Source of the DNA: Microcaldota archaeon
GTDB taxonomy: Archaea; Micrarchaeota; Micrarchaeia; Burarchaeales; Fermentimicrarchaeaceae
Reading direction: 5' to 3'
DNA: 34,975 nucleotides
Assembly (NCBI GenBank): GCA_013425405.1
Contig: JACCLF010000029.1
Span: 1 to 34,975, forward strand
The number at the start of each line of letters is the position of its first letter. Within the stretch, counting starts at the first letter, position 1. Below, in pieces: positions 4,156 through 6,664 of this stretch. The notes beneath the pieces are model-generated. The model did no database searches, had not been told where the DNA came from, and saw only the letters and a list, made by a program, of their open reading frames with translations. Both the position numbers and the translations under genes were made by a program.

Positions 4156-4259
4156 TGGGCCCGGTGCGATTTGAACGCACGACCCCCCGGTTATCAGCCG
4201 AGTGCTCCGACCAAACTAAGCTACGGGTTATAGTGCAGAAGCGAATGCTTCTGCATCCC
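4156..4259 (-). tRNA. tRNA-Ile(GAT) with a 29-nt intron in the acceptor stem
   Basis: Read on the minus strand, exon 2 forms a full cloverleaf: D-arm GCTTAG...GGAGC, anticodon stem CTCGG/CCGGG with loop CTGATAA (anticodon GAT), T-arm GTGCG-TTCAAAT-CGCAC, and 3' acceptor strand CGGGCCC with discriminator A at 4156. CCA is not encoded. The 5' acceptor strand GGGCCCG is split after position 3: GGG (4257-4259) is separated from CCCG (4224-4227) by intron 4228-4256. The intron folds as TGCAGAAGC-ATTC-GCTTCTGCA. With the flanks it gives a bulge-helix-bulge: outer CGG/CCG, 4-bp ATAG/CTAT, bulges GGA and AAC, cut after the second base of each. An alternative reading starts the tRNA at GGGTCCG (4273), with one G-U pair and no fitting bulge-helix-bulge. 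Confidence 0.85.
4228..4256 (-). other. tRNA intron between acceptor positions 3 and 4
   Basis: This 29-nt segment interrupts the 5' acceptor strand. It forms a 9-bp perfect hairpin plus the inner strand of the 4-bp helix (CTAT pairing with ATAG of exon 1 and leader). Three-nucleotide bulges on opposite strands (GGA at the 5' site, AAC at the 3' site) match the substrate of archaeal tRNA-splicing endonuclease. Removal restores a fully Watson-Crick acceptor stem GGGCCCG/CGGGCCC. Confidence 0.75.
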
Positions 4260-4284
4260 TATCCGCCGGACCCATTTAACAACT

Positions 4285-4312
4285 GTTGTTTCTCTTATGT
4301 TGTTTCTCTTAT
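4285..4312. repeat. Two tandem 14-bp direct repeats
   Basis: GTTGTTTCTCTTAT occurs twice back to back (4285-4298 and 4299-4312) in the spacer between the tRNA gene and the FBP aldolase/phosphatase gene. It lies within the presumed promoter/leader region of the minus-strand tRNA. It may be a slipped-strand duplication or a regulatory element; nothing decides between these. Confidence 0.6.
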
Positions 4313-4322
4313 ATTCTAAATC

Positions 4323-4337
4323 CATATATTTAAATGC
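4323..4337 (+). promoter_or_regulatory. TATA-box promoter of FBP aldolase/phosphatase gene
   Basis: CATATATTTAAATGC is an archaeal TATA box. Transcription is expected about 25 nt downstream, near 4356, leaving a short leader that carries GGTGAT (4359-4364), complementary to the 16S 3' end, 4 nt before the ATG at 4369. Confidence 0.55.
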
Positions 4338-5487: not shown

Positions 5488-6372
5488 TCAGAGCCTTAAA
5501 TCAATCCCGAAAAGCTTGAAGAATGTTATAGATGCCAGGGCTGCTATCAGGATAAAGTCGAAGAGCATATTCCAGCCTAGTGAGTGGAATGCCTGAAGGG
5601 CACTGGAAACTCCGGCGTTATACCAGATGAGCAGCACTATTAGTATTCTCAGTACGTCCAGCACCCAGGTCATTATGAGCCATAGTGCAAGCCACACCAC
5701 TTTGTTTATGGCATTTCCTTTTGCAGCATAGGCAAACGGGAGCAGGAAGCAGAAAAGTGCAATAATTGAGCTTAGTGAAACGCATTCTGGGACTACTTCC
5801 ATGAATCCCTGAGTTTGTGAGTTGAATACATTTCCATACCTCTCTATGGCAAGACCGCTGAGGGTTATTGGGATGGCAACAATGTCGCTTGTGAAGTTAG
5901 TGAGGCTCTGCTGGGTGGATGCAAGGGGTTGGAAAAGGGGTGTCCAGAGAAGGAATAGGTACAGAATTGGGGGGAGCAGTCTTTTTATCGTGTAGATGCT
6001 GAAGAAAAGCAGGACGGCGCCGGCAGTGAAGAATGGAATGGAGAGCATGTCAAGAGCGTAGTTGGGAAACGCGCCAGCTTCGAACAGCAGAATGGCTGAG
6101 ACTGCAAAGAAAGGCAGGGAGAGCAGAAGCTTTTTGGAATCCCTGCCGACCTTCAAGTCTGTTCTGTAGAAGAATATGAGCGTTATGAGAAACATCGGAG
6201 GGATGATTGCAACATAGGAGTAGGGATCCTTGTCATCTATGTATAGCTTCATGCTGGAAAATGTTCTGTAATAGACCAGCAGGGTGAAGCACATAAGAAG
6301 CAGAAACGAAACTGCTGCGAGTTTCCATTCCTCCACTGCATCTTTTTTGCTCCTTCTTGCCATTCTTTTCAT
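5488..6372 (-). CDS. Archaeosortase/exosortase family transpeptidase
   Basis: The 294-aa polytopic membrane protein has about eight hydrophobic helices and the exosortase/archaeosortase catalytic triad in order: Cys197 in PECVSLSSI, Arg242 in VLDVLRILIVL and His263 in AFHSLGWNM. Such enzymes cleave C-terminal sorting tails and attach surface proteins to lipid. The start MKRMARRSK is chosen because TTTATATA lies about 28 nt upstream, implying a leaderless mRNA. A longer frame to 6447 would overlap the neighbouring gene. It ends 3 bp from the convergent FBP gene. No protein with a PGF-like or other tripartite C-terminal tail was seen in the window, so its substrate is encoded elsewhere or has an unfamiliar tail. 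Confidence 0.85.
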   Translation of the reverse strand: MKRMARRSKKDAVEEWKLAAVSFLLLMCFTLLVYYRTFSSMKLYIDDKDPYSYVAIIPPMFLITLIFFYRTDLKVGRDSKKLLLSLPFFAVSAILLFEAGAFPNYALDMLSIPFFTAGAVLLFFSIYTIKRLLPPILYLFLLWTPLFQPLASTQQSLTNFTSDIVAIPITLSGLAIERYGNVFNSQTQGFMEVVPECVSLSSIIALFCFLLPFAYAAKGNAINKVVWLALWLIMTWVLDVLRILIVLLIWYNAGVSSALQAFHSLGWNMLFDFILIAALASITFFKLFGIDLRL

Positions 6373-6403
6373 TGTCTCACATATTTGCATCTTGGTATAT
6401 AAA

Positions 6404-6664
6404 TCATCCGCATTTATTTCTCTTTGAGAGTAAAAGCAGGAAGCCAAGAGCTATGAAAAACAACCCTACGGGGACGAATACCCAGCTGTAGCGCACCAGC
6501 AGCAGTGAGAGGGCGCCAACAAAAGCAAAGAAGAGTGGTATTGAAGGAAAGGCTGCCATCAGGCAGGGTATGCACATCATGCTGAATGTTGCGAGAAGGC
6601 CGGATACTAAACCTATTATTAGGAAGTTGATGCTTAACTTCGCCTTATCCTTCTTCTTAGCCAT
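6404..6664 (-). CDS. Small membrane protein with CIPC motif
   Basis: An 86-aa protein with a lysine-rich N-terminus (MAKKKDKAKL) and three hydrophobic segments (about 13-32, 42-60 and 62-80). Cys31 and Cys34 form a CIPC motif at the end of the first helix, broadly like small mercuric-transport or thiol-redox membrane proteins, but no family is firmly recognised. The start at 6664 is supported by a TATA-like TTAATATAT about 25 nt upstream. The reading frame continues upstream of 6664 only as antisense of the ACT gene. The archaeosortase promoter lies at its 3' end. Confidence 0.65.
   Translation of the reverse strand: MAKKKDKAKLSINFLIIGLVSGLLATFSMMCIPCLMAAFPSIPLFFAFVGALSLLLVRYSWVFVPVGLFFIALGFLLLLSKRNKCG

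What the first reader, a model, noticed from the sequence alone, without database searches (positions are those of the whole stretch)
4156..4259. tRNA-Ile(GAT) intron at an unusual acceptor-stem position (3/4)
The tRNA is split after its third nucleotide by a 29-nt intron with a perfect 9-bp hairpin and a bulge-helix-bulge (outer CGG/CCG, 4-bp ATAG/CTAT, bulges GGA and AAC). Cutting at these bulges restores a fully paired acceptor stem. Introns outside the anticodon loop are known in some archaea, but a position this near the 5' end is rare, and RNase P and splicing must act almost at the same place. The leader also contains GGGTCCG, which could pair with the 3' acceptor strand as a competing fold.
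Basis: partly seen in the sequence, partly recalled or inferred. Interest (0 to 1): 0.62.

Follow-up and report, generated by a model that had tools for sequence, protein, structure and literature searches.

The report
tRNA-Ile intron near its 5' end
In a tiny uncultured archaeon, the only gene found for one isoleucine tRNA is interrupted after its third letter by a 29-letter intron; a related species has it too and others lack it, which makes it a real, recently changing example of a rare but known kind of intron.

Summary
On the minus strand, tRNA-Ile(GAU) is exon 1 GGG (4259-4257), a 29-nt intron (4256-4228) and exon 2 (4227-4156), with a perfect bulge-helix-bulge. Splicing gives a 75-nt tRNA identical, 75 of 75, to the intronless gene of Candidatus Fermentimicrarchaeum limneticum. 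The window is from that Micrarchaeota genus. A second species (G003) carries the same intron, with a two-sided change that keeps a hairpin pair. Three congeners have an intact gene at the same place, including G004, the closest relative of G003. It is the only tRNA-Ile(GAU) found in the genome, which also has a full-length epsilon2-type splicing endonuclease, an RtcB ligase and RNase P RNA. Position 3/4 is already reported for some Thermoproteales tRNAs, so this is a new member of a known kind. New here: the 5' half of the splice motif lies in the leader, so splicing must precede leader removal. The leader also holds GGGUCCG, predicted to pair with the free 3' acceptor strand (P about 0.999), giving a complete cloverleaf before splicing. 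Whether that surrogate strand helps or hinders is untested. In passing: two genomes of the same order carry one T-loop intron family in many different tRNAs.

The parts
4257..4259 (-). exon 1 of tRNA-Ile(GAU): GGG, positions 1-3
   Evidence: sequence; equals positions 1-3 of intronless orthologues
4228..4256 (-). 29-nt intron ATGCAGAAGCATTCGCTTCTGCACTATAA
   Evidence: orthologous intron in G003/L064
4156..4227 (-). exon 2 of tRNA-Ile(GAU), positions 4-73, discriminator A at 4156; no CCA encoded
   Evidence: Rfam RF00005 45.5 bits; ARAGORN anticodon GAT
4260..4265 (-). leader CGGATA: CGG (outer helix h) and ATA (three of the four 5' bases of the central helix) of the BHB
   Evidence: identical in G003
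4234..4255 (-). inner hairpin of the intron, 9 bp with loop ATTC (4246-4243)
   Evidence: G-C to A-U change on both sides in G003
4230..4233 (-). CTAT, 3' strand of the central helix
4267..4275 (-). leader AUGGGUCCG: surrogate (competing) acceptor strand, 7-9 bp with 4163-4155
   Evidence: P about 0.999 in precursor fold; identical in G003; chance 0.4-2.9% by shuffles
4157..4163 (-). CGGGCCC, 3' acceptor strand, contested by exon strand GGGCCCG and leader strand GGGUCCG
4326..4334 (-). TTTAAATAT, probable TATA box of the tRNA gene
   Evidence: conserved in all five congeners, 32-33 nt from the mature 5' end in the three intronless ones, 59 and 75 nt in the two intron-bearing ones; role inferred

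Best explanation
This is the single working tRNA-Ile(GAU) gene of a Fermentimicrarchaeum species, interrupted at position 3/4 by a bulge-helix-bulge intron. The epsilon2-type splicing endonuclease cuts at GG|A and AA|C. RtcB joins GGG to CCCG, restoring the acceptor stem, and RNase P then removes the leader. Because CGG and ATA of the motif lie in the leader just before +1, early RNase P cleavage at +1 would destroy the splice motif, so splicing must come first. Before splicing, the leader strand AUGGGUCCG probably pairs with the free 3' acceptor strand, so the precursor is a complete cloverleaf with the BHB as an extra arm at the 7/8 junction; after splicing the better-matched GGGCCCG must replace it. 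The intron with its lengthened leader was gained inside the genus, and its presence has changed again since G003 and G004 parted. Shown here: anatomy, comparison, single copy, presence of the enzymes. Inferred: cleavage, order of steps, the role of the surrogate strand.
For: Perfect BHB, beyond shuffles. Product 75/75 identical to the intronless gene of Sv326. Same intron in G003, with all 5 differences in the intron confined to the hairpin loop (3) and one compensatory pair (2), and 17 of 17 bases of GGGTCCGGCGGATAGGG kept while the leader upstream of it does not align. Orthologues in G001, G002, G004 intact at the same syntenic place. Among 301 genomes of the class, 70 match a tRNA-Ile(GAT) pattern and only G000 and G003 have an unpaired base in front of position 4; two other hits are intact GGACCCG stems. 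Only one tRNA-Ile(GAT) in the genome. EndA of 395 aa aligns end to end with ARMAN-2 4fz2, E 4e-145. RtcB and RNase P RNA present. Precursor fold: surrogate plus BHB -53.8 kcal/mol against -44.9 with the surrogate strand left unpaired.
Against: No RNA data: splicing, ligation and the 5' end are not observed. ViennaRNA puts the exact 4-bp central helix at P about 0.2, with the BHB fold 0.5 kcal/mol above the optimum. After splicing, with the leader still attached, the true acceptor stem is not the predicted optimum: leader pairings are better by 1.3-5.0 kcal/mol in the model, so maturation needs proteins, tertiary contacts or co-transcriptional folding. The genome is a 91% complete MAG with 6.5% contamination, so a second copy in missing sequence is not excluded.
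Confidence: 0.9

Rival explanations
1. The gene is a decayed pseudogene with a broken acceptor stem, and another tRNA reads AUC and AUU.
For: Positions 1-3 directly upstream of exon 2 (UAA) do not pair; the MAG is incomplete.
Against: No other tRNA-Ile(GAT) among 38 Rfam tRNA matches; exon 2 is 72/72 identical to G001 and G003 although four-fold sites of neighbouring genes are only about 40-57% identical; the BHB is kept with a compensatory change.
Confidence: 0.03
2. The mature tRNA uses the leader strand: it begins GGGUCCG and a 43-nt insert at 7/8 is removed.
For: GGGUCCG pairs fully with CGGGCCC; GGGTCCG is the real acceptor strand of tRNA-Ile in some other Micrarchaeota (L192, L193).
Against: The 7/8 ends lie at the foot of a helix, not in bulges, so no BHB supports that cut; congeners all have GGGCCCG.
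Confidence: 0.04
3. The leader GGGUCCG is a harmless relic or coincidence (for example the old 5' end left behind by the insertion) with no part in folding or processing. This is a rival on the surrogate strand only, compatible with the intron itself.
For: The insertion had to carry its own leader; 1 of 96 other tRNA leaders also has a 7/7 match to its own 3' strand, and shuffles give 0.4-2.9%; only two related sequences carry it, so its conservation may be shared descent.
Against: 17 of 17 bases kept between species whose upstream leader no longer aligns; predicted pairing P about 0.999 in both precursors.
Confidence: 0.5
4. Assembly artefact: chimeric joining at the conserved tRNA.
For: Both carriers are, as far as can be seen, metagenome assemblies; in G003 the tRNA segment looks like G000 while both flanks look like G004.
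Against: The G000 and G003 intron alleles differ from each other (92% over 63 nt), so one is not a copy of the other, and both form the same motif.
Confidence: 0.03

Closest known systems
Position 3/4 tRNA introns of Thermoproteales (Sugahara et al. 2008, as cited in Yoshihisa 2014, PMC4090602)
   Same: Same insertion point in the acceptor stem, stated there as an extreme case.
   Different: Other phylum (Micrarchaeota). The original paper is not held, so isotypes, leader use and any surrogate strand in those genes could not be compared.
Non-canonical BHB tRNA introns in general (D arm, anticodon stem, variable loop, T arm)
   Same: hBHBh' motif, short, excised by EndA.
   Different: At other positions both motif strands come from exon and intron; here the 5' outer helix and most of the 5' strand of the central helix come from the leader, forcing splicing before 5' processing.
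epsilon2-type splicing endonuclease of ARMAN-2 (4fz2; PMC12397907, PMC4033280)
   Same: Own-genome EndA aligns over its full length; reported broad substrate range.
   Different: Activity on an acceptor-stem intron not tested.
tRNA-Thr intron heterogeneity in Caldiarchaeum (PMC3293823)
   Same: Presence or absence of a tRNA intron among very close relatives.
   Different: There linked to an integrated mobile element; here the change is a short block of leader plus intron with no element seen.

Membership tests
Archaeal BHB (hBHBh') tRNA intron | Two 3-nt bulges on opposite strands separated by a 4-bp helix, flanked by helices | tested here: met
   chance control
Archaeal BHB (hBHBh') tRNA intron | Excision restores an intact tRNA | tested here: met
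   75/75 identity to the intronless gene of Sv326
Archaeal BHB (hBHBh') tRNA intron | Cleaved by splicing endonuclease and ligated by RtcB | not testable with these tools
   genes present; reaction not observed
Position 3/4 tRNA intron (as in Thermoproteales) | Insertion between nucleotides 3 and 4 | tested here: met
   class described in PMC4090602
epsilon2-type splicing endonuclease | Three-unit chain of about 395 aa homologous to ARMAN-2 over its whole length | tested here: met
   4fz2 aligned over query residues 11-394, E 4.2e-145
Split (trans-spliced) tRNA | Halves transcribed from separate loci | tested here: not met
   both exons lie 29 nt apart on one strand, downstream of one TATA-like box

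The most novel reading that the evidence does not exclude
The leader carries a surrogate 5' acceptor strand (GGGUCCG) selected to hold the free 3' strand in a full cloverleaf while the real 5' strand is tied up in the splice motif; splicing then releases GGGCCCG, which displaces the weaker surrogate (U4-G69 against C4-G69) and makes the RNase P site. This would be a built-in RNA strand-exchange switch that enforces the order of tRNA processing.
Probability: 0.3. Interest if true: 0.6.

Novelty: new member of a known kind. Interest (0 to 1): 0.4.

Why it matters
Acceptor-stem introns force an answer to the order of tRNA splicing and 5' trimming, because here the leader is part of the splice motif. 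Sister species about 94% identical in DNA that differ in this intron offer a natural before-and-after pair for studying how such introns come and go, in a lineage with the broad-specificity epsilon2 endonuclease.

Tried and rejected
A 43-nt intron from the first GGG (4273-4271) to CCCG was rejected: same product, but no BHB at GGG|T. A 7/8 intron was rejected: ends not in bulges. A source copy of the intron elsewhere in the genus was sought and not found: no other match better than E 0.016, and the leftovers are short pieces of 15-24 nt. Original papers on 3/4 introns (Sugahara 2008), ARMAN endonuclease (Fujishima 2011) and BHB motifs (Marck and Grosjean 2003) are not held. Thermoproteales genomes could not be reached for a direct comparison of leaders. 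Direction of the G003/G004 difference (gain by exchange in G003, or replacement in G004) was not settled: neighbouring gene trees disagree on where G000 falls.

Full report
Setting. The window is contig C24 of a 0.95-Mb genome (91% complete, 6.5% contamination). The best matches of the neighbouring fructose-1,6-bisphosphatase are Micrarchaeota MAGs and Candidatus Fermentimicrarchaeum limneticum Sv326 (91-94% identity), and four congeners are held (G001-G004). By identical sequence at the locus, G001 corresponds to L067 (Sv326), G002 to L066, G003 to L064 and G004 to L065.

Observation. On the minus strand the only tRNA found by ARAGORN or Rfam is tRNA-Ile(GAT). Rfam matches model positions 4 to 67 only, because UAA, not GGG, stands before CCCG. 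Going upstream, the sequence reads GGGUCCG-GCGGAUA-GGG-[AUGCAGAAGCAUUCGCUUCUGCACUAUAA]-CCCG. It forms CGG/CCG, a central AUAG/CUAU helix, bulges GG|A and AA|C, and a 9-bp hairpin. In 400,000 shuffles of the upstream 70 bases, a BHB that also restores the acceptor was found 8 times with an inner helix of 3 or more pairs and never with 6 or more.

Comparison. Splicing at the bulges gives a 75-nt tRNA identical at every base to the intronless gene of Sv326. Three congeners have an intact GGGCCCG at the same place next to the same gene. G003 has the intron: it differs from the window at one hairpin pair (G-C to A-U, both sides changed) and at three of four loop bases, and at none of the 17 bases GGGUCCGGCGGAUAGGG. 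Outside this block G003 is mostly 92-94% identical to G004, which has no intron, and only about 70-85% to G000, which has it. So the intron has been gained or lost, with its leader, since G003 and G004 parted, most simply by exchange of a short block around the tRNA. The direction is not settled, because gene trees around the locus conflict over the place of G000. Across 301 genomes of the class, 70 contain the tRNA-Ile(GAT) pattern used, and only G000 and G003 have a base before position 4 that is not part of an intact stem (the two other hits, G029 and G055, are GGACCCG). The pattern misses tRNA-Ile genes interrupted elsewhere, which are common in this order.

Function. No second tRNA-Ile(GAT) was found among 38 tRNA matches, so the gene is very probably needed. 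The genome has one splicing endonuclease, 395 aa, matching the epsilon2 enzyme of ARMAN-2 over its full length, an RtcB and an archaeal RNase P RNA. Epsilon2 enzymes are reported to accept introns at varied positions (PMC4033280; PMC12397907). Three of the four bases in the 5' central-helix strand, and all of the 5' outer helix, lie in the leader. RNase P cutting at +1 would therefore remove the motif, so splicing must come first (inference from anatomy). In the three intronless species the TATA-like box is 32-33 nt from the mature 5' end, so their leaders are probably only a few bases long. In the two carriers the distance is 59 and 75 nt, so the leader is longer wherever the intron is present.

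Surrogate strand. In both precursors the leader AUGGGUCCG is predicted to pair with CGGGCCCAU, P about 0.999, and this stabilises the BHB-containing fold by about 9 kcal/mol (-53.8 against -44.9 with that strand left unpaired). The precursor would then be a full cloverleaf with an extra arm. In the spliced form with leader attached, the model still prefers leader pairings over the true stem by 1.3-5.0 kcal/mol, which ViennaRNA cannot settle because tertiary contacts, proteins and co-transcriptional folding are left out. Chance of a 7/7 leader match is 0.4% or 2.9% by dinucleotide shuffles, and 1 of 96 other tRNA leaders has one. Conservation in two related alleles is suggestive, not proof. A role is put at 0.3.

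Known work. Yoshihisa 2014 states that introns at 3/4 occur in certain Thermoproteales tRNAs, citing Sugahara 2008 (PMC4090602), and a 2025 paper lists the acceptor stem among intron sites (PMC12397907). The present intron is therefore a new member of a known kind. No paper found here describes one in Micrarchaeota, but absence from an open-licence library is weak evidence.

Noticed in passing
loci L229, L230, L235-L236, L239-L240, L242-L247, L249-L258 (genomes G008 and G013, same order as the window): A 50-60-nt sequence family (CATCCCTTTTCTTTC..GAAAGAAAAGGTCTGGATCAACCCCAAAAGAAA) gives 34 and 20 matches in these two genomes; in most of the copies fetched it stands directly after GTTC(A/G)AA of a tRNA T-loop, in tRNAs of many isotypes. 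It looks like genome-wide spread of one T-loop intron in Micrarchaeota.
   Followed up: partly
L030 1501-1603; L147, L148, L149 (own genome C8, C3, C17, C30): Other non-canonical tRNA introns in the same genome: tRNA-Val(GAC) in the anticodon stem, tRNA-Ser(CGA) in the T-loop, tRNA-Ser(GCT) in the D-arm, tRNA-Gly(CCC) apparently in the D-arm.
   Followed up: partly
window, about 4286-4313: The leader of the window's gene holds a 14-bp tandem duplication, ATAAGAGAAACAAC twice, absent in G003.
   Followed up: no
window 5488-6447, minus strand: Membrane protein of the exosortase EpsH family (PF09721, E 3e-21), an archaeosortase-like enzyme in a Micrarchaeota genome.
   Followed up: no
L065 3601-3672 (G004): tRNA-Ile(GAT) of G004 differs at 5 of 72 bases from that of its closest relative G003, while G000, G001 and G003 are identical; it may have been replaced by recombination.
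   Followed up: partly
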